From Pigmentiphaga humi (GTDB lineage: Bacteria; Pseudomonadota; Gammaproteobacteria; Burkholderiales; Burkholderiaceae_B): a stretch of DNA of 62,670 nt. This document shows, in pieces, positions 24,389-39,973 of this stretch. The notes beneath the pieces are model-generated. The model was not told the DNA's origin, ran no database searches, and was given only the letters and a program-made list of their open reading frames with translations. The stretch covers positions 1 through 62,670 of the forward strand of contig NZ_UWPJ01000031.1 of NCBI RefSeq assembly GCF_900606115.1, given 5' to 3'. The translations under genes and the position numbers were made by a program. How positions within the stretch are numbered: the first letter of the stretch is position 1; each line of letters opens with the position of its first letter.

Positions 24389-25303
24389 AATATATCCACC
24401 CGCCAGATGAAGGCCTTCCTCTGCCTGGCGCGCCTGCAGAGCTTCACGCGCGCGGCCGAGCAATTGCACATCACGCAGGCCGGCCTGAGCGCGATGATGC
24501 GCGATCTCGAAACCCAGTTCGATTGCCGGCTGTTCGATCGCACCACGCGAGCGGTGTCGCTGACCCCGGCCGGACTGCAGCTCGTTCCGCGCGTGGAGCG
24601 CATGCTGGCCGAATTCGGCGACGCCTGTCTGGCGCTGGGCAAGATCAGCGCGCACGCCAAGCGCGTGCTGACCGTGGCCGTCGCGCCCGTGGTCGCGTCC
24701 AGCCTTTTCGCCGAAGTCTGCGAGCATTTCGGCAGAAAGGAGCCGGAGGTGACGGTCAGGCTCCGCGACGTCAACAAGGAGCGCATCCTGGCCATGGTCG
24801 AAAGCGGCGAGGTCGACGTCGGCTTCTGCGCCCAACCCAATCCCGCCGCCGCCACCGAACGCCTGCCGCTGTTCAAGTGCCACTTGCTGTGCATCGCCAA
24901 GCCCGGCGTGCTCAAGCTCGCGCCCTCGCGCGACGGCGGACTGCCCACGGTGACCTGGGCGCAGTTGCCGGCCTTGCCCATTCTCGCGTCCGCCGATCCC
25001 AGCCAGGGCTTGATCGACGCCTATCTGGACCGGATCGGCCGGGCGCACGAAGAGCGGCCGGCCTACGAAAGCATGCCCACCATCATCGCGATGGCCGCGA
25101 GCGGCTTCGGCATAGGCTTCGTGCCGTCCTTCGCCTTGCCGACCTGTCTGCGCCTGGGCGTCGAGGTCGCGCGCCTGCAGCGGCCCTCGGTGGCCGTCGA
25201 TTTCTACCGCATTACCAAGAAGGGGCGCGAAGTGCCGCGCCTGGTCGATCCGTTCGTGGCTTCCCTGGTCGAGGTGGCGCACCAGGTGGGCGTGGCGCGC
25301 TAG
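24386..25303 (+). CDS. LysR-family regulator of the oxygenase operon
   Basis: LysR-type regulator of 305 aa. The helix-turn-helix is SFTRAAEQLHITQAGLSAMM (residues about 18-37), and the C-terminal two-lobed effector domain follows. The start is GTG at 24386 (an ATG lies at residue 8). It is divergent from the beta-alpha-Bug operon, and the 126-bp gap holds paired inverted repeats with the LysR look. It very probably activates the oxygenase genes in response to the aromatic substrate. Confidence 0.9.
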   Translation: MNISTRQMKAFLCLARLQSFTRAAEQLHITQAGLSAMMRDLETQFDCRLFDRTTRAVSLTPAGLQLVPRVERMLAEFGDACLALGKISAHAKRVLTVAVAPVVASSLFAEVCEHFGRKEPEVTVRLRDVNKERILAMVESGEVDVGFCAQPNPAAATERLPLFKCHLLCIAKPGVLKLAPSRDGGLPTVTWAQLPALPILASADPSQGLIDAYLDRIGRAHEERPAYESMPTIIAMAASGFGIGFVPSFALPTCLRLGVEVARLQRPSVAVDFYRITKKGREVPRLVDPFVASLVEVAHQVGVAR

Positions 25304-25360
25304 GGCGCGGGCGAACCAGCCCACGCAGCCCAGGCTGTCCGCCACGGTTTCTCGGCCGGG

Positions 25361-28267
25361 TCATTCCAGCAGCAGTGCCAGCTTGTTGATGATGCCGAGG
25401 CTGCTGGGGTTGACGATGTCCAGGGGCGTACGCTCGGGCGCGAAGTTCAACGCCTTCTTCAGGCCGTCGCCCACGGTCGTGGCGCTCAGCGGCAGCAGCA
25501 TCACGTAGGTATCGCCACCGGCCATGGCCTGGGCGATGTCCACCGCCGCGCCGTCGCTCATGCGCCGCACCGTGCGCTGGGCGGAGGGGTTGTTGCTTGG
25601 CCGGAAGGCACTATAGGCTCCGTCGGAGTAATGGGCGAGCATGGTCTCGTTGAGGTAGCGCTGCGCAACCGAGTACCGGTTGCCGCGGACGATCTGATCG
25701 GGGTCGGGGTCCGCGGCACGGTAGGACAGCGGGACGACCATGAGCACGTTGAACTTGGCCAGGCGCGCGGGGTCGTTGCCGGACTGCGGGAAGTTCACCG
25801 AGTAGTTCCAGCTCAACCGCTCCAGAAACGAGTTCTCCTGGGCCGCCACGACCTCGCGCATGGGCTTGCTTGCGAAAAACGGGAACGACTCTTCCAGACC
25901 CAGCACCTGGTAGCCCTCGTACTTCGGGTTCAGCGCGGGTTTCAAGGCGAGGCCGGTCCAGTCGTAGGGCCGCAGCGTCCAGCTGGCGCCATAGATCGCC
26001 TGGTAGGCGCCGAAGTTCTGCACGAACACCAGCGTCGGCGGGCTGCCCTGATTGAAGATATAGACCGGGTACCAGGGGGTCTGGATGGATTTTGCGCTGC
26101 GGTAGAGCGAGAGCGGATCGGTGTTGGGATTGCTGAAATCCACCGTCGCCAGATCGTCGCTTCCTATCTGCAGCGAGGTCCAGGTGACCAGTTGCGCGCC
26201 GCCGTCGGCGGTCCAGCGCAGCGGCATGTAGCCGCCGGGCGCGACCGCCCATGCCTTGCCCTTGACGGGGTCGAGCAGGGTGCCCATCACGTAGTCGTAG
26301 TAGTCCAGGTCCTGCAGGCTCTTGTACAGCTCGCTCTGCGCCTTGGTGCTGCTCGTGCCCAGGACCGCCTTTTTGTAGCCAGCCAGCACCGCCGTGGTCA
26401 GGTCCGTGCCCTGCTGGAGCGTCAGGGTGACCAGCTCATAGGCCCGGGCCGATGCCGCCAGGTAGAACTGGTGGTAGCGCGCGCTCATCTCGGGCGTGAC
26501 GTTGCTGGCCGAGAAATTGGCCAGGAAGCGCAGGTAGGAGTCGAGCCTGCCGAGTTTTTCCACCCCCAGCATCAAGTCCATCAGATGGGGAAAGCTGCCG
26601 ATGGTTTTGGTGGCGCCGGGAATGTCGAGGTTGGGGCGCAGCTGGGGAATGACGCCGTCATAGGGTAGGGTCTCGAAGCCGTTGACGTACATTTTGTCGA
26701 AACGCACGAGATTGCCTTCGCTGGCCTGCGGCGGTTGCTGGAGTTGCTTGGCGCGCTGATTCAGTGTGTCCAGCTCGGCGACGAGCTGGAGATAGGCATT
26801 GCTGCTGTCCTGGCCGGCTTGCAGCAGCGTGCTGTCGTCAGCATCGAGTATCACCAGTCCGCTGTCGGCCCGCTTGCGCGAACGCTCCAGTTGGTCCGCG
26901 TCCTTGGCGGCCTTCTTGTCCGCCTGGTATTGCTTCCACTGGTCATAGGAGGTGAACGCCGTGTCCGGCGGGACGTCCTGTTCAGGGTGCTTGGGGCCCA
27001 CCGGTTCGGGCAGCTTCACCCCGGGATCCTTGGGCAGGCTGCCCATGGGCGGCACTTCGGACGTGCTCTGGTCCTTCAGCATGGTATGCAGGCTGTTGAC
27101 CCAGGCCGCGGTGTCCGCCACGCCGGCGGGCATGGACTCGGCCGAGACCTGAACGTTCTGGACGGCCGAGGCCCAGCCGTTCTGCTTGTAGTACTGGAAC
27201 GATCCCGATGCCCCGGCGCCGGAGTTCAGCGTCTCGTACTCGACCGAGAGCGACGCGCCGTATTGCGCCTCGGTGTTGCCGCTGGCCTTGCTGAAGGTGA
27301 GCTGGCCCTTGGCGATGCCCCGGTTCATCGAGGTGGTCCTGGAGACGAACGAGTCGCCGTTGAAGGCGTAGAAGTCGGCGATGGCGCTCACGATCTTGCG
27401 GCGCAGCTCGGTCATCTCGCCGACCAGCAGCGCCTGGATGGACGCGTCGGTGCACAGCCCGTGCTGCGTCCGCAGATCGGAGAAGACGGTCTCCATGCGC
27501 GTCAGCAGCTGGATGTTGGCGTAGGGTTCCGTGTCCGCCTGCTTGTAGCGGTCGACCTTGACGCTGGCAATGTAGGGCTTGCCGGCGCAGGCGGCGGTGG
27601 GCGCGCTTTCGGTGGTAGCGACGTAGCTCTGCAGTTGCTCATCGGTCAGTTTGGTGCCGATGAGGTAGGGCGTCAGGTTCTCGGTGCCTGTGAACCCGGA
27701 GTTCAAGAGGGCGACGACGTTGTTGGTGTTGGCGGACACCATCTGGACGCTGATGGTGCCATCGGAATTGGTGCTCTCCCAGGCGTTGGCCTGGTGGTAA
27801 GCCCCCGCGGCCCTGAAGCCCGAGTAGGTGCCGGATACCGAGCCGTCGATGGTGGTCTGGCTGCTGGCCGAGCTGGCGGTCTTGTTGCTGGTGAGCCTGA
27901 GCTCGGTCTTTTCTTGCGAACCCGTGGTGTCCACGTTCAGCCGGTTGTCCTCCTTCAGCCGGCCCAGGTCGAAGATGGGGCGCAGGTTGTAGGTGGAGGC
28001 GGCGGAGTCGATGCTGGAGCCGACCGACAGCGACTTGATGCTGTCCGGCGTGATGTCCGTGCCTCGGCTGGCGTTCAGCAGATAGCGGTTGAAATCCTCC
28101 TCGTCCATGGACGCGTTCGCGGCCAGGGCGGGGTAGAGCGAGGTGTTGGACGGCTCAGGCTCGGTCGAGCCGCCGCCGCAACTGGCCAGGCAGGCCAGGC
28201 AGGCCAGCGCCGCCGGCCGCAGGGCCGGGGCGACGAGAGCGGAGCGGCCCGTGCGCGTTTGTTGCAT
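25361..28267 (-). CDS. Large secreted lipoprotein of unknown function (possible MACPF-like region)
   Basis: 968-aa lipoprotein. The signal peptide ends in the lipobox LASC (C30), followed by GGGS, so it should be anchored in a membrane, probably the outer one. I do not recognise the family with confidence. Residues about 240-330 contain a helix-rich lead-in and then FNGDSFVSR (302-310), which recalls the YGxxFV segment of MACPF/perforin proteins, followed by alternating beta-rich sequence. Around 440-470 there is a charged Lys/Asp helix, and the C-terminal half is Tyr/Trp/Asn-rich. It follows the other lipoprotein gene by 82 bases, and they are probably co-transcribed. The ATG at 28267 has AGGAAC upstream; an in-frame ATG at 28306 lies in a hairpin loop. 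Confidence 0.7.
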   Translation of the reverse strand: MQQTRTGRSALVAPALRPAALACLACLASCGGGSTEPEPSNTSLYPALAANASMDEEDFNRYLLNASRGTDITPDSIKSLSVGSSIDSAASTYNLRPIFDLGRLKEDNRLNVDTTGSQEKTELRLTSNKTASSASSQTTIDGSVSGTYSGFRAAGAYHQANAWESTNSDGTISVQMVSANTNNVVALLNSGFTGTENLTPYLIGTKLTDEQLQSYVATTESAPTAACAGKPYIASVKVDRYKQADTEPYANIQLLTRMETVFSDLRTQHGLCTDASIQALLVGEMTELRRKIVSAIADFYAFNGDSFVSRTTSMNRGIAKGQLTFSKASGNTEAQYGASLSVEYETLNSGAGASGSFQYYKQNGWASAVQNVQVSAESMPAGVADTAAWVNSLHTMLKDQSTSEVPPMGSLPKDPGVKLPEPVGPKHPEQDVPPDTAFTSYDQWKQYQADKKAAKDADQLERSRKRADSGLVILDADDSTLLQAGQDSSNAYLQLVAELDTLNQRAKQLQQPPQASEGNLVRFDKMYVNGFETLPYDGVIPQLRPNLDIPGATKTIGSFPHLMDLMLGVEKLGRLDSYLRFLANFSASNVTPEMSARYHQFYLAASARAYELVTLTLQQGTDLTTAVLAGYKKAVLGTSSTKAQSELYKSLQDLDYYDYVMGTLLDPVKGKAWAVAPGGYMPLRWTADGGAQLVTWTSLQIGSDDLATVDFSNPNTDPLSLYRSAKSIQTPWYPVYIFNQGSPPTLVFVQNFGAYQAIYGASWTLRPYDWTGLALKPALNPKYEGYQVLGLEESFPFFASKPMREVVAAQENSFLERLSWNYSVNFPQSGNDPARLAKFNVLMVVPLSYRAADPDPDQIVRGNRYSVAQRYLNETMLAHYSDGAYSAFRPSNNPSAQRTVRRMSDGAAVDIAQAMAGGDTYVMLLPLSATTVGDGLKKALNFAPERTPLDIVNPSSLGIINKLALLLE

Positions 28268-28290
28268 GTTGAGGTTCCTGCTTCGACAGC

Positions 28291-28319
28291 TCCCATCGGT
28301 TGCCATGCAAACGATGGGA
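28291..28319 (-). promoter_or_regulatory. Hairpin between the two lipoprotein genes
   Basis: The 13-base arm at 28291-28303 pairs with 28307-28319 with one mismatch and a 3-base loop. No T tract follows on the minus strand, so it is more likely an mRNA stability, processing or translation element than a terminator. The loop holds the alternative ATG (28304-28306) of the downstream gene. Confidence 0.5.
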
Positions 28320-28349
28320 GCATATTTGACGGGTAGGGTGCTGCCGGTC

Positions 28350-30455
28350 CTAGTTGTCGTACTTCACCGGTACAGGGAAGCTTAGGTGGTTCTTGACCAC
28401 AGCCTGGTCGTTCTCCCGCTGCTGGTTGGGGTCTGCGCTATCGCACCAGGTGTCGGACTTGGGATGCTTGACGCCCTTGGCGGTCATGACGCTGCACGCG
28501 GACTTGTCGACGATCTGCGCGCGATTGGTGGGGCAGCTCTTCAGGTCGCCGGTGCACTTGGCGAACTTCTCCCGGACGTAGATGGTGTAGACGTTGTCTT
28601 CCATGTCGGTGAAACGGGCCTTCAGGGGGTACGACGGCACGGTGCCGACGCGGAATCCGCTGATCTGGCTGTTGGTCGGCATGATCACGTCCTGCTTGTC
28701 CTGGTTGCAGTTCGGGTCGGCGGGGTCGGTGTTCAGCGAGCAGACGCCGTACTTCTTGAGGATCGGCACATTGATGCGGCCAGCCAGCGCCTGGGGCACG
28801 CCCAGTCCCACCGAGAAACCATCGGCGTAGTTGAAGGATTTTTCGTTCTCCAGACCCTGCGTGCCGCCCACGGTGAACACCAGGCCGTCGCCCAGCTCGC
28901 TCATGAAGCCCACGGCGTCATCCACCGAGAAGGCGTAGGCGCTCATGTCCAGATCGTCGTGGATCAGCTTGACGTAGGGGTTGAAGGCCAGCTTGGTGTT
29001 GGCCTGGACGTCGGCCTGCCTGTAGTTGTATTGCAGATCCTCGATGTAAAGGGCCTGCAGGTAGGCGTGGTCGTGGCCGTTGACCTTGGTGTCGACCAGC
29101 TTGTTGGCGTCCGAGCCGCAGCCTTCGTTGAACGGCACCCAGCCGTAGATGTGCTTGATGGCTTCCCAGAACTTGAACTCGGCGACGTGCGCCGGTATCT
29201 TGCCCGAGCCCGCGGGATCGCCGGTGCACTGCTTGTTGGCGTACATGGTCAGGTACTTCTTGTGGTTCTCGGCGAAGAAGTCCTTGACCAGGGCCAGGTC
29301 CTCCTGCATCGCCTGCGGGGCGGGGCAGTCCTGGGGGTACTTCTTGCTCGTGTAGGCGCTGATGTCCTCGCTGCCCCAATCGACGCAGGAGCCCCACAGG
29401 TCCTGAATGTTCTGCACCGCCTGGCCCCATTGCATGGTGCGTTGTTCCTCGGGGGTGCATTGCCCTTCGATGCATTTCATCACCGTCAGCACCGGCGGGT
29501 TCTTGCCGTCGGCCGGCTTGACGGGCACGTCGGGATCCTCGATCAGGTAGCCGTTGCGCTGGGCGAAGATGTTGTAGCCGCCGGGCAGGCGCAGTTCGCT
29601 CATGTTGTAGACCGGCCAGCCCTCGCCCAGGCCGCCGGTTTTGACGAAATTGCTCAGGGCGGTGCGGAATTCGGCCGGCTTTTTCGCCGAGCCGCTGTAG
29701 CCGATGTAGGGATTGCTGCGCACGCCGATGGCCACGGGCATGTAGACGTGATCGACGTAGGAGATGTTGTAGCCCACGTTCTCGGGCTTGAGCATCCGCG
29801 TGGTCTGCTTGGGGGGGACGATGGAATCGCCGAAGGTGTATTCCGACAACTGGGCGAACACGTCCTCCTGGAACTGCACCGGGCTGGTGTAGGTGCTCAG
29901 GGTGCACGCCGTGCCCTGCCCCTTGCAGGTCACGCCTGCCGGCGTGGTCGCGGGCTTGTCGTCGCCGTTGCGCAGCCGCTTGTTGCGGTCGGCCAGCAAC
30001 ACGCGGCCGCCGTTCCACCAGGTGACGTAGTTGCCCGGCGACAATTGGCTGTACAGCGGCAGCGTGAGGGTGACCTCCGAGTCCGGCGGGATGCCTTTGC
30101 CGTCGTTGACGTAGAGCTTGTAGACCGCCTCGGTGGGAAAGGGGTCGGTGGAGCGCAGGCAGCCCTGCACCCACTGGTTGACACTGTTCATGCTGGTAGC
30201 CAGCACGGGGTAGATCTGCTCGTCGGAGTTGTTGCGGATGGTGATGGTCTTGGCTTTGACCACCACGCTCTTGCCGTCGTAGTCCTTGCAGGTGATGGGT
30301 GCGCTGCCCGTGGGCAGGCCATCAGGGTCGCTGCTGCTTGTCGGCTCGGAGGCGCCGTCGCCGCCGCAGGCCGCCAGGGCGAGGGTGAGCGCCAGCGCGA
30401 CGGCGGCGGCGGGCACCGGGGATGGGGCCTTGCCAAGTGGAGGAGAGGCGCGCAT
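28350..30455 (-). CDS. Large secreted lipoprotein of unknown function (possible thaumatin/GH64-like domain)
   Basis: 701-aa lipoprotein with a long hydrophobic signal and lipobox LAAC (C30), then GGDGASEP and a Ser-rich linker. It has many cysteines (about 18 after the lipobox), consistent with a disulfide-bonded extracytoplasmic protein. Residues about 55-330 contain beta-sandwich-like phrases such as ITIRNNS, WWNGGRVLLADR, YNISYVDHVYMPVAIG and LPGGYNIFAQRNGYL, which recall thaumatin-like or GH64-type proteins. This is a weak resemblance, not a firm call. The C-terminal part includes CSLNTDPADPNC. It is first gene of the pair, transcribed away from the LuxR-type regulator across 479 bp. Confidence 0.7.
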   Translation of the reverse strand: MRASPPLGKAPSPVPAAAVALALTLALAACGGDGASEPTSSSDPDGLPTGSAPITCKDYDGKSVVVKAKTITIRNNSDEQIYPVLATSMNSVNQWVQGCLRSTDPFPTEAVYKLYVNDGKGIPPDSEVTLTLPLYSQLSPGNYVTWWNGGRVLLADRNKRLRNGDDKPATTPAGVTCKGQGTACTLSTYTSPVQFQEDVFAQLSEYTFGDSIVPPKQTTRMLKPENVGYNISYVDHVYMPVAIGVRSNPYIGYSGSAKKPAEFRTALSNFVKTGGLGEGWPVYNMSELRLPGGYNIFAQRNGYLIEDPDVPVKPADGKNPPVLTVMKCIEGQCTPEEQRTMQWGQAVQNIQDLWGSCVDWGSEDISAYTSKKYPQDCPAPQAMQEDLALVKDFFAENHKKYLTMYANKQCTGDPAGSGKIPAHVAEFKFWEAIKHIYGWVPFNEGCGSDANKLVDTKVNGHDHAYLQALYIEDLQYNYRQADVQANTKLAFNPYVKLIHDDLDMSAYAFSVDDAVGFMSELGDGLVFTVGGTQGLENEKSFNYADGFSVGLGVPQALAGRINVPILKKYGVCSLNTDPADPNCNQDKQDVIMPTNSQISGFRVGTVPSYPLKARFTDMEDNVYTIYVREKFAKCTGDLKSCPTNRAQIVDKSACSVMTAKGVKHPKSDTWCDSADPNQQRENDQAVVKNHLSFPVPVKYDN

Positions 30456-30934
30456 TTCAGACTCCTTTGTAGATGTCGGATGTGAGTTTTTCTGGGAAGC
30501 GGGGGCTCGTCATGGGCCAGCCCGCTCGCCGAAGGCCTGGGCGGCGGCGTCGGCCGGGCCGCGCGGCTTGCCATTGCCGGGCAAGCGCTGAAAGCCGGAT
30601 CGACCGCCTTCATTGGCGTGTTTGTAAATTCTAGTGAGCTGTGGTCCGCGTGCCATGGGCGACGTTAGGTTCGTGCGTCCCAGTTTGGAGCTTGGCGTCC
30701 CACCGCGTGCGCCGGCGCGTCATGCCATCCATTCCCCGTCTTTCTTCTAGACCGTGAGCGGCAGACGACCCGGAGTTAATAACCAAGATAAATGCCGCCA
30801 TTCAATTAAAAATAGGCAGGCCGTGCCCGCCTTCTGATGCGCGAGCTTATAGTAGAAATTACACTGTCCCTATCCACTGATGTGTAGGGGTCGGCCTTTG
30901 TCCACCCGACGGGTAGCTGCATCAACAAGAGGAA
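30456..30934. promoter_or_regulatory. 479-bp divergent intergenic region (lipoproteins / LuxR regulator)
   Basis: No gene-like frame is seen. The stretch 30770-30870 is A/T-rich (for example TTATAGTAGAAATT near 30847) and probably holds the promoters. An imperfect 22-bp palindrome with CCCTA/TAGGG arms lies at 30868-30889, about 45-65 bases before the regulator's start. Confidence 0.55.
30868..30889. promoter_or_regulatory. Candidate lux-box-like palindrome
   Basis: CCCTA (30868-30872) and TAGGG (30885-30889) flank an inner region with partial dyad symmetry. The total length of 22 bp is close to that of LuxR-family operators. It sits upstream of the LuxR-type gene. Confidence 0.4.
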
Positions 30935-31723
30935 ATGGGCGTGCTGGATCAGAGTGTTCAAGAGGATATTCACCGCTTGTGGGATGAACTCACCGATTTC
31001 GACGCGGGCCAGACCGATGCCGCCGCCCGGCATTTGCAGGAACGTCTGTGCCGCATGGTGGGGGCATGGAACTCGACCTGGGGCGGAGCCGCCCGGCTCG
31101 ACCCGGGCCCCGGCAGCGACGATCCGCTGCAAGGCTGGCGCGTGGCCGTGACCCGGCTTCTGTACCCCTTTGAAGCGCCCGCGGAGGACGGTCCATTCAA
31201 AGAACTGCAAAAGCGCTGGAACAGCCGCGAAATGGATGTTTCCTTTTTGCAGCCCATGCACGGCATCGGCCAATTCCGTACCTACGGACACCGGCGCGAT
31301 TTACCGCCGGAGTGGTTCGACGGCCCCATTTACCAGATGTTCAGCGCCCGCTACGGCACGGTGGACTCGCTGTGGGTAGGATTCCCGATCAATGGCGATG
31401 CGGAATCGCATTTCGGCTTCTACGCCCGCAAGGTGTTCACCGATGGAGACTACGAATTGCTGGCCTACGCGCTGCGCGGCATCAAATGGTTTCATCGCCA
31501 GCTCATGCTCACCAGCGGGCCGCTGGTGGCCAAGTCGCCCTTGACACCTACCGAGCGCAAGGTGCTCGGGCTGCTGCTGACCAAGGCATCGGAACGTGTG
31601 ATCGCCGATCAATTGGGGCTGGCCGTCTCCACCACCCATCAGCACATCGTCTCCGTGTTCCGTAAATTTGCCGTGCGCAGCCGCGCCGAGTTGATGAGCC
31701 TGTGGCTGAGCCGCCCTTGCTGA
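30935..31723 (+). CDS. LuxR-family transcriptional regulator
   Basis: 262-aa protein with a C-terminal LuxR/GerE helix-turn-helix (about residues 204-258: LTPTERKVLGLLLTKASERV followed by the recognition helix VSTTHQHIVSVF). The N-terminal ~190 residues do not show obvious autoinducer-binding signatures; they contain aromatic-rich sequence that could be a PAS/GAF-like sensor. No luxI synthase is nearby. It is divergent from the two lipoprotein genes and is their likely regulator. The start could be ATG 30935 or GTG 30941; the AGAGG at 30928-30932 is better spaced for GTG. Confidence 0.85.
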   Translation: MGVLDQSVQEDIHRLWDELTDFDAGQTDAAARHLQERLCRMVGAWNSTWGGAARLDPGPGSDDPLQGWRVAVTRLLYPFEAPAEDGPFKELQKRWNSREMDVSFLQPMHGIGQFRTYGHRRDLPPEWFDGPIYQMFSARYGTVDSLWVGFPINGDAESHFGFYARKVFTDGDYELLAYALRGIKWFHRQLMLTSGPLVAKSPLTPTERKVLGLLLTKASERVIADQLGLAVSTTHQHIVSVFRKFAVRSRAELMSLWLSRPC

Positions 31724-31767
31724 GGGCGGCCGCGCGATAGCCCCCGCCGCCCGCACTGCTTCGCCAT

Positions 31768-31812
31768 AAAAAAACACCCCAAACGCTGGATTCGCGTCCA
31801 GCTTTTGGGGTG
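31768..31812 (-). terminator. Rho-independent terminator of the secDF operon
   Basis: CACCCCAAACGCTGGA (31775-31790) pairs with 31797-31812 with one mismatch. Seven A residues at 31768-31774 form a U tract when read on the minus strand, downstream of secF. Confidence 0.9.
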
Positions 31813-31836
31813 CGGTTCGGCCTTGCCGGGGCGGGG

Positions 31837-32769
31837 TCAGCCCACGACTTCGCCCGTATCCTTCTTGAGCGGCTTGACCAGGTCCTCGCGTTTGACGCCC
31901 AGCCACATGGCGATGGCGGCGGCGACGAACACCGACGAGTAGATGCCGAACCAGATGCCGATGGTCAGCGCCAATGCGAAATAATGCAGCGACGGGCCGC
32001 CGAAGATCAGCATCGCGATCACCATCATCTGGGTCGAACCGTGGGTGATGACGGTGCGTGAGATGGTGGCCGTGATGGCGCTGTCGATGACTTCCTTGAC
32101 CGTCGCCTTGCGCTGCTTGCGGAAGTTCTCGCGGATCCGGTCCATGATCACCACGGATTCGTTCACCGAGTAGCCCAGCACCGCCAGCACCGCGGCCAGC
32201 ACCGGCAGCGAGAATTCCCACTGGAAGAAAGCGAAGAAGCCCAGGATGATGACCACGTCGTGCAGGTTGGCCACCACCCCGGCCACGGCGAACTTCCATT
32301 CGAAGCGGAAGGCGAGGTAGATCATGATGCCGATCACCACGAACAGCAGCGCCAGCAGGCCGTCGTGCGCCAACTCCTTGCCGATCTGGGGGCCGACGTA
32401 CTCGACGCGCCGCAGCTCGACGCTGGGGTCGGAAGCCTTGAGGGCTTCGATGACCTCGTTGCTCTGCTGGGTCGAGGACTTGCCCTCGATGTTGGGCAGC
32501 CGGATCATCACGTCGCGCGAGGTGCCGAAGTTTTGCACCTGGAAGTCGGCATAGCCTTTCTGCGCGATGGTGGCGCGAACCTTGTCCAGCTCGGCCGCCT
32601 GCGAGTAGGCCACTTCCATGACCGTGCCGCCGGTGAACTCGATGGACAGGTGGAAGCCCTTGGTGGCGATGAAGAACACCGCCGCCAGGAAGGTCACCAG
32701 ACTGATCAGGTTCAGCACCAGCGCATGGCGCATGAACGGGATGGTCTTGTGGATGCGGAAGAATTCCAT
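31837..32769 (-). CDS. secF: Protein translocase subunit SecF
   Basis: Inner-membrane protein of 310 aa which, with SecD and YajC, uses the proton gradient to help SecYEG complete protein export. It has six membrane helices with the large periplasmic domain after helix 1 (about residues 40-130). Family motifs include GGTVMEV near residue 47, the LAALLAVLGYSVNESVVIMDRIREN-type region in helix 4/5 (DR near residue 209) and SRTVITHGST. It begins 5 bases after the end of secD, and a terminator follows. Confidence 0.96.
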   Translation of the reverse strand: MEFFRIHKTIPFMRHALVLNLISLVTFLAAVFFIATKGFHLSIEFTGGTVMEVAYSQAAELDKVRATIAQKGYADFQVQNFGTSRDVMIRLPNIEGKSSTQQSNEVIEALKASDPSVELRRVEYVGPQIGKELAHDGLLALLFVVIGIMIYLAFRFEWKFAVAGVVANLHDVVIILGFFAFFQWEFSLPVLAAVLAVLGYSVNESVVIMDRIRENFRKQRKATVKEVIDSAITATISRTVITHGSTQMMVIAMLIFGGPSLHYFALALTIGIWFGIYSSVFVAAAIAMWLGVKREDLVKPLKKDTGEVVG

Positions 32770-39888: not shown

Positions 39889-39973
39889 GCCCGGGTGGTG
39901 AAATTGGTAGACGCAGGGGACTCAAAATCCCCCGCCGCAAGGCGTGCCGGTTCGATTCCGGCCCCGGGCACCA
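39889..39973 (+). tRNA. tRNA-Leu (anticodon CAA)
   Basis: 85 nt with an encoded CCA. The acceptor stem GCCCGGG pairs with CCCGGGC. The anticodon stem GGGGA/TCCCC encloses the loop CTCAAAA, giving anticodon CAA (reads UUG). A class II variable arm follows (CGCCGCAAGGCG), then the T arm GCCGGTTCGATTCCGGC. All elements are intact. Confidence 0.97.

What the first reader, a model, noticed from the sequence alone, without database searches (positions are those of the whole stretch)
25361..31723. Two giant unknown lipoproteins divergent from a LuxR-type regulator
Seen: genes for 701-aa and 968-aa lipoproteins (lipoboxes LAAC and LASC) lie in tandem, and a LuxR-type HTH regulator is divergent across 479 bp. 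Known: MACPF/perforin proteins carry a YGxxFV-like segment, and thaumatin/GH64-like proteins have Trp/Gly-rich beta sandwiches. Inference: the 968-aa protein has FNGDSFVSR and the 701-aa protein has thaumatin-like phrases, so the pair might be a regulated surface system that attacks or binds other cells or glucans. I recognise neither family firmly.
Basis: partly seen in the sequence, partly recalled or inferred. Interest (0 to 1): 0.75.

Follow-up and report, generated by a model that had tools for sequence, protein, structure and literature searches.

The report
Regulated surface glucan-attack lipoprotein cassette
A bacterium has picked up a small gene cassette, found so far in few other bacteria, in which a regulator gene sits beside two big surface-anchored proteins; one looks like a very distant relative of enzymes and plant proteins that act on fungal-type cell-wall sugar (beta-1,3-glucan), while the other belongs to no known family.

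Summary
The genes are real and placed as described. They form a horizontally acquired cassette: the same LuxR gene (88% identical) and both lipoproteins (69-71%) recur in Comamonas testosteroni JL40. The cassette is missing from the same spot in 9 of 9 congeners fetched; here it replaces genes kept in the nearest one. The 701-aa lipoprotein is a very divergent GH64/thaumatin-superfamily relative that the libraries used here do not recognise: the GH64 catalytic Glu/Asp pair aligns to E205/D235, invariant in 7 of 7 members, and the profile match beats 396 of 396 shuffles in two tests. One member joins this domain to a GH16-like beta-glucanase half in a lipoprotein. In a genome of another order, two LuxR genes of the same kind (63% and 39%) flank the domain gene; they are that genome's only hits at E up to 1e-10. 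The MACPF idea for the 968-aa protein failed: no Pfam or PDB match, and a profile score reached by 13 of 100 shuffles, while known MACPFs find each other. That protein is an orphan family with three members seen. Both structure predictions failed. Best reading: a LuxR-controlled outer-membrane lipoprotein pair that cuts or binds beta-1,3-glucan; the partner's role is open.

The parts
25361..28267 (-). 968-aa lipoprotein (981 aa if the upstream ATG at 28306 is used); family with three members seen and no library match over a cut-off
28350..30455 (-). 701-aa lipoprotein with a divergent GH64/thaumatin-superfamily domain; E205 and D235 align with the GH64 catalytic pair
30456..30934 (.). 479-bp divergent intergenic region, probable regulatory region; 30291-30925 (from inside the 5' end of the 701-aa gene to just before the LuxR gene) does not align with Comamonas at DNA level
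   Evidence: one weak promoter-like site at 30656-30628(-), no more than expected by chance
30935..31723 (+). 262-aa LuxR-type regulator with an N-terminal part of unknown type
25307..25347 (-). 41-bp remnant of an amidase gene at the left border of the cassette
   Evidence: 88% identical to L034 4858-4898, inside a frame that reads as an amidase in the nearest congener (my reading)
31724..31836 (.). right border: spacer to the end of the secF gene (31837-32769, minus strand; gene name by my reading), with a terminator-like hairpin at 31779-31801(-)

Best explanation
This is a horizontally acquired three-gene cassette. A LuxR-type regulator is transcribed divergently from two outer-membrane lipoproteins. 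The first lipoprotein (701 aa) carries a very divergent GH64/thaumatin-superfamily domain that most likely cuts beta-1,3-glucan, such as fungal, oomycete or algal wall or curdlan, with E205 as acid and D235 as base. The second lipoprotein (968 aa) is probably made with it and is a partner of unknown fold. Shown here: the gene layout, the lipoboxes, the homologous cassette in Comamonas, the replacement of resident DNA, the in-register catalytic pair, and the repeated linkage to one LuxR family. Inferred: co-transcription, regulation by this LuxR protein, outer-membrane location (Gly at +2), glucan as substrate, and partnership.
For: Cassette: Comamonas L004 holds LuxR (88%) and a 69% and a 71% identical lipoprotein. 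Absent at the locus in 9 of 9 fetched congeners (no DNA match of 80 bp or more at E up to 1e-10 between 25304 and 31826); the 968-aa gene is absent from 10 of 10 congeners. In the nearest congener the site holds frames that I read as LysR, PrpF-like, Bug-type binding protein and amidase; 41 bp of the last remain here. Domain: hhalign score of four members against five GH64 sequences is 30.1, reached by 0 of 200 column shuffles (top 22.7); with seven members 31.4, reached by 0 of 196 completed shuffles (top 22.0), and 16.0 for the reversed profile. The aligned block places E205/D235 on the GH64 Glu/Asp pair (alignments; a passage of PMC8394091 names Glu153 donor and Asp169 base); an earlier comparison with one GH64 protein gave the same register (E 0.028). 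Both residues are invariant in 7 of 7. Two sub-threshold Pfam GH64 matches are co-linear: P0006 218-240 to profile 132-154, P0002 490-515 to 321-347. Context: in a genome of the same order (G156) the domain is fused, in one lipoprotein, to an N-terminal half that matches solved GH16 beta-1,3-glucanases (best E 1e-4). Linkage: in G949 two LuxR homologues, 63% and 39% identical to P0003, flank the domain gene and are that genome's only two hits at E up to 1e-10; 2 of 50 genomes searched had any hit, one of them the window's own.
Against: No curated family cut-off is met (best 15.2 against 27 bits; the GH64 model finds no match in the window's genome). PDB searches with the 701-aa protein, the four-member profile and the seven-member profile (five chance-like chains) found no GH64. 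The significant profile block is only about 40 columns. AlphaFold2 models failed (pLDDT 31). G884, G1125 and G156 hold the domain but no such LuxR gene, and none is seen among the frames of at least 200 aa in the 12.7 kb read around the Kovacikia gene. No relative of the 968-aa protein lies in the loci read around the five divergent members. G949 was put in the LuxR search because it holds the domain, so the linkage rests on one distant case plus Comamonas.
Confidence: 0.55

Rival explanations
1. The 701-aa protein is a non-catalytic thaumatin-like binder or inhibitor: it anchors cells to glucan or another ligand, or blocks a foreign enzyme, without cutting anything.
For: GH64 and thaumatin-like proteins form one superfamily, and thaumatin-fold proteins include glucan binders (passages of PMC13251364) and an enzyme inhibitor (passages of PMC4960229). 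Divergence is extreme (23-28% identity between the window protein and the distant members).
Against: Both residues aligned with the GH64 catalytic pair are invariant in 7 of 7 members, and one member is fused to a GH16-like glucanase half.
Confidence: 0.27
2. One reading: the 968-aa protein is a MACPF/perforin-type pore-former that works with the wall-active 701-aa protein.
For: A FNGDSFV segment resembles the MACPF signature by eye. Surface lipoproteins with a MACPF domain exist as weapons: BSAPs (passages of PMC12853789). A two-component protein pair with an aegerolysin part occurs in an Alcaligenes strain (passages of PMC5465095).
Against: No MACPF match in Pfam for 3 of 3 members, none in the window's genome with the MACPF model, none in the PDB with the full or the central profile. 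Profile comparison with three known MACPFs scores 17.8, reached by 13 of 100 shuffles (an earlier comparison with two was as weak), whereas each known MACPF finds the other two at E 1.9e-4, 6.3e-8 and 3e-10. The signature itself, as recalled, is not matched.
Confidence: 0.1
3. A plain nutrient module: surface digestion of environmental beta-glucan for carbon, with no attack on other cells. This overlaps with the best explanation and differs only in purpose.
For: Comamonas adds an alpha/beta hydrolase and a beta-lactamase-family hydrolase between the LuxR gene and the lipoproteins.
Against: Among the frames listed, I see no transporter or sugar catabolism gene in the cassette here or on the Comamonas contig; the contig is short (10.5 kb).
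Confidence: 0.25
4. Unrelated neighbours: ordinary lipoproteins that merely travel together with a regulator of something else.
For: In four of the five carriers of the domain other than the window and Comamonas (G156, G884, G1125, and Kovacikia within the 12.7 kb read) no such LuxR gene is seen; the intergenic region is not conserved at DNA level.
Against: The same three genes keep together in Comamonas at 69-88% identity, and in G949 the only two LuxR relatives found in that genome flank the domain gene.
Confidence: 0.12

Closest known systems
GH64 endo-beta-1,3-glucanases (Streptomyces matensis LPHase 3GD0; GluY of Cellulosimicrobium)
   Same: Glu/Asp catalytic pair in an equivalent block and, by eye, a C-terminal N-x-[YFW]...H...Y-x-F-x-x-DD block
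   Different: Below the Pfam cut-off; lipoprotein; larger; 30 instead of 16 residues between Glu and Asp; activity untested
Thaumatin-like proteins (IPR001938)
   Same: Same superfamily as GH64 (passage of PMC13251364)
   Different: No Pfam thaumatin match listed up to E 5; bacterial lipoprotein; REDDD motif not tested
GH16 beta-1,3-glucanases
   Same: One member (L048 6108-8276) carries a GH16-like half next to the shared domain
   Different: The window protein has no GH16 match
Bacteroidales BSAPs (MACPF lipoproteins)
   Same: Surface lipoproteins (passages of PMC12853789)
   Different: No MACPF relationship found for the 968-aa protein
AfIP-1A/1B binary insecticidal proteins of an Alcaligenes strain
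   Same: A bacterial protein pair whose component B had no recognised family in that paper (passages of PMC5465095)
   Different: Component A is an aegerolysin, none seen here; I did not compare sequences
LuxR-type regulators without a recognised sensor domain
   Same: C-terminal GerE HTH
   Different: The N-terminal part reaches no Pfam cut-off, and no autoinducer-binding domain is listed

Membership tests
GH64 (PF16483) | curated Pfam score of 27 bits | tested here: not met
   15.2 bits, E 0.013 for the 701-aa protein; 12.8 bits for the Comamonas protein; no GH64 match up to E 1 for the five other members scanned; no match in the window's genome
GH64 (PF16483) | catalytic Glu (donor) and Asp (base) in register | tested here: met
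   E205/D235 aligned to the GH64 pair, 0 of 200 and 0 of 196 shuffles as good; invariant in 7 of 7
GH64 (PF16483) | barrel plus mixed domain fold (recalled) | tested here: inconclusive
   AlphaFold2 model failed, pLDDT 31
[quoted passage not shown]
   needs enzyme assay
Thaumatin-like proteins (PF00314) | Pfam thaumatin match | tested here: not met
   none listed up to E 5 (the tool's filters drop most matches above about 0.1)
Thaumatin-like proteins (PF00314) | REDDD motif and disulfide pattern | not tested
   no usable structure
MACPF (PF01823) | Pfam match or profile similarity | tested here: not met
   no Pfam match; profile score reached by 13 of 100 shuffles; positive control works; no PDB match
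MACPF (PF01823) | signature Y-x(6)-[FY]-G-T-H-[FY] (recalled) | tested here: not met
   the protein has YAFNGDSFVS
MACPF (PF01823) | pore-forming fold | tested here: inconclusive
   model failed, pLDDT 31
LuxR-type regulators | C-terminal GerE helix-turn-helix | tested here: met
   PF00196 E 4.2e-9, 36.3 against cut-off 23.5 bits
Bacterial lipoproteins | signal peptide with lipobox and Cys | tested here: met
   LAAC and LASC read in the sequence, kept in Comamonas; read by eye, no predictor was run

The most novel reading that the evidence does not exclude
A mobile, LuxR-governed two-lipoprotein surface machine for killing or feeding on glucan-walled cells: one lipoprotein of an unrecognised branch of the GH64/thaumatin superfamily opens the beta-1,3-glucan wall, and a second, of an entirely new family, acts on the exposed membrane or hands over the product. 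The unknown N-terminal part of the regulator would sense the prey.
Probability: 0.15. Interest if true: 0.8.

Novelty: new variant of a known kind. Interest (0 to 1): 0.5.

Why it matters
It points to a branch of the GH64/thaumatin superfamily that the Pfam and NCBIfam copies used here do not recognise. Its members are thinly spread (4 of 369 genomes of the class sample including the own; one cyanobacterial plasmid), share a conserved catalytic pair, and in three genomes lie beside one kind of LuxR gene. If active, it would be a regulated, transferable beta-1,3-glucan-directed surface system in Gram-negative bacteria and a lead for antifungal biology. The 968-aa partner is a large conserved family with no recognised relative.

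Tried and rejected
Structure route: both AlphaFold2 jobs were run on alignments of 2 and 3 sequences and gave pLDDT 31, so no fold search was made. MACPF route: rejected by sequence. Defence and phage libraries: for the two lipoproteins only matches of E 0.048 or worse; for the regulator matches to its HTH. Plasmids: none for the 968-aa protein; one cyanobacterial plasmid for the 701-aa protein. Viral contigs: no relative in three scans. Phylum sample for the 968-aa profile: 1 of 398, the own genome. Order sample for the 701-aa protein: 2 of 300, own and G156. Comamonas contig ends: a 59-nt inverted repeat, 98% complementary; L004 1-180 has no match among plasmids. PDB searches with profiles of the domain: no GH64. 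A search for more MACPF yardsticks gave 2 of 299, 1 of 48 and 2 of 99 genomes, three different genes in all, and none in plasmids.
Full report
Observation. The left gene reads 981 aa from ATG 28306 or 968 aa from ATG 28267; the Comamonas protein starts at the second. Both lipoprotein signals are clear by eye, each with Gly after the Cys, which by general knowledge of lipoprotein sorting favours the outer membrane. The LuxR-type HTH is confirmed (PF00196, E 4.2e-9), and the gap is 479 bp. The two lipoprotein genes are 82 bp apart if the 968-aa start is used (28268-28349).

Relatives of the cassette. A pattern scan of one genome per species, which finds close relatives only, found two relatives of the 968-aa protein: Comamonas testosteroni JL40 (L004, 71%) and a Rubrivivax metagenome assembly (L005, 63%; its contig begins inside the gene, so its upstream side is unknown). 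The Comamonas contig also holds the 701-aa homologue (69%) directly upstream and the LuxR gene (88%) pointing the other way, with an AraC-type regulator, an alpha/beta hydrolase and a beta-lactamase-family hydrolase between. So all three genes are linked in the only other locus that shows them all. DNA identity is 75.6%, 77.0% and 78.7% over the three genes; 30291-30925 does not align.

Acquisition. The 968-aa gene is found in 1 of 121 genomes (own plus 120 relatives, 10 of them congeners) and in 1 of 398 of the phylum sample (own). The locus was fetched from 9 of the 10 congeners; none has a DNA match of 80 bp or more at E up to 1e-10 between 25304 and 31826. In the congener nearest by the secF protein (G008, 97%) the place holds frames that read as LysR, PrpF-like, Bug-type binding protein and amidase (my reading); the window keeps 41 bp of that amidase frame at 25307-25347, next to the cassette. 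The cassette therefore replaced resident DNA, if G008 shows the older state. In Comamonas the contig is bounded by a 59-nt inverted repeat, 98% complementary, whose inner end overlaps the stop codon of the 968-aa homologue. This may mean a mobile unit or only an assembly break at a repeat.

What the 701-aa protein is. It reaches no curated cut-off. Sub-threshold GH64 matches occur at two co-linear places. Two remote relatives came from a plasmid of the cyanobacterium Kovacikia and from G156 of the same order (E 6.4e-4); a profile of four then found three more in a sample of 369 genomes of the class (4 of 369 including the own genome). Over seven members the invariant columns include E205, D235 and D512/D513 of the window protein. 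In GH64 sequences the corresponding blocks are SEYT...QVD in 3gd0 and [AS]YGFxxDD; a passage of PMC8394091 names Glu153 as proton donor and Asp169 as base in a GH64 enzyme, 16 residues apart, as in the 3gd0 block. In the window protein the two lie 30 apart. Profile comparison: four members against five GH64 sequences scored 30.1, against a top of 22.7 in 200 column shuffles; seven members, re-aligned, scored 31.4, against a top of 22.0 in the 196 shuffles of 200 that completed, and 16.0 for the reversed profile (29.6 with the first alignment of the same seven). In each case the best block puts Glu and Asp in register. Against this: the block is short (about 40 columns), PDB searches gave no GH64, the GH64 model finds nothing in the window's genome, and the fold model failed.

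Context of the domain. In G156 the domain is the C-terminal half of a 722-aa lipoprotein whose N-terminal half matches solved GH16 beta-1,3-glucanases (best E 1e-4; Pfam found nothing). In G949, of the same class but another order, the 1063-aa domain protein is flanked by two LuxR genes 63% and about 38-39% identical to the window's. P0003 searched in 50 genomes (own, the four other genomes with the domain that have handles, 10 congeners and 35 others that I picked from earlier lists) hit 2 of 50 at E up to 1e-10: the own genome once and G949 twice, exactly these two genes. G884, G1125 and G156 had no hit. No relative of the 968-aa protein was found in L055, L056, L057, L009, L048 or L034 (best E 0.13). 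So what recurs at distance is LuxR plus the glucan-type domain, in one distant genome; the 968-aa protein is known only from the window, Comamonas and Rubrivivax.

What the 968-aa protein is. Three members align over nearly full length. Library matches are all weak: best E 0.015 (NCBIfam, in the signal-peptide region), 0.028 (Pfam), 0.057 (PADLOC), 0.17 (PHROGs); PDB none for the protein and only chance-like for the profile. The MACPF proposal was tested directly: residues 80-440 of the family against three known bacterial MACPF domains scored 17.8, and 13 of 100 shuffles did as well, while each known MACPF found the other two at E 1.9e-4, 6.3e-8 and 3e-10. A fold-level relation is not excluded, since the model failed.

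Mechanism. Most likely the regulator, answering an unknown signal through its N-terminal part, switches on the lipoprotein pair; the 701-aa protein is displayed on the outer membrane and cuts (less likely only binds) beta-1,3-glucan, and the 968-aa protein assists. Only layout, homology, acquisition, linkage and the in-register catalytic pair are shown. The regulator is more conserved than the lipoproteins (88% against 69-71%; dN 0.07 against 0.19 and 0.21).

Literature. Listings: MACPF with aegerolysin, bacterial and Alcaligenes faecalis, three of four terms (26 papers, 20 listed); MACPF with glucanase, bacterial and lipoprotein (2, neither on such a pair by title and abstract start); GH64, thaumatin, laminaripentaose, two of three (35, 15 listed); bacterial MACPF with lipoprotein and antimicrobial (1); GH64 with Bordetella (0); thaumatin with LuxR, bacterial and lipoprotein (0); GH64 with Comamonas (1 review). 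None of the listed titles describes this cassette. The library holds open-licence papers only. PMC8394091, PMC5465095, PMC12853789, PMC13251364 and PMC4960229 were seen as passages only.

Noticed in passing
L004:1-59 and L004:10459-10517: A 59-nt inverted repeat (98% complementary) bounds the Comamonas contig that carries the cassette; its inner end overlaps the stop codon of the 968-aa homologue.
   Followed up: partly
window:25303-25347: A short amidase-like remnant marks where the cassette replaced resident DNA; a second junction at about 25303-25307 joins it to the LysR gene side.
   Followed up: yes
window:40001-44000: G+C falls to 56-58% just after a tRNA-Leu gene (39889-39973), against 62-73% in the other 2-kb steps: a possible island.
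   Followed up: no
window:2668-2723: An nhaA-I RNA (Rfam RF03057, minus strand) above the gathering score.
   Followed up: no
L048:6108-8276: A 722-aa lipoprotein with a GH16-like half fused to the GH64/thaumatin-like domain, in a small genome (1.7 Mb) of the same order.
   Followed up: partly
L009:19-5751: In Kovacikia a 1910-aa protein with sub-threshold FG-GAP and PQQ-propeller matches lies 30 bp upstream of the domain protein, perhaps a different partner.
   Followed up: no
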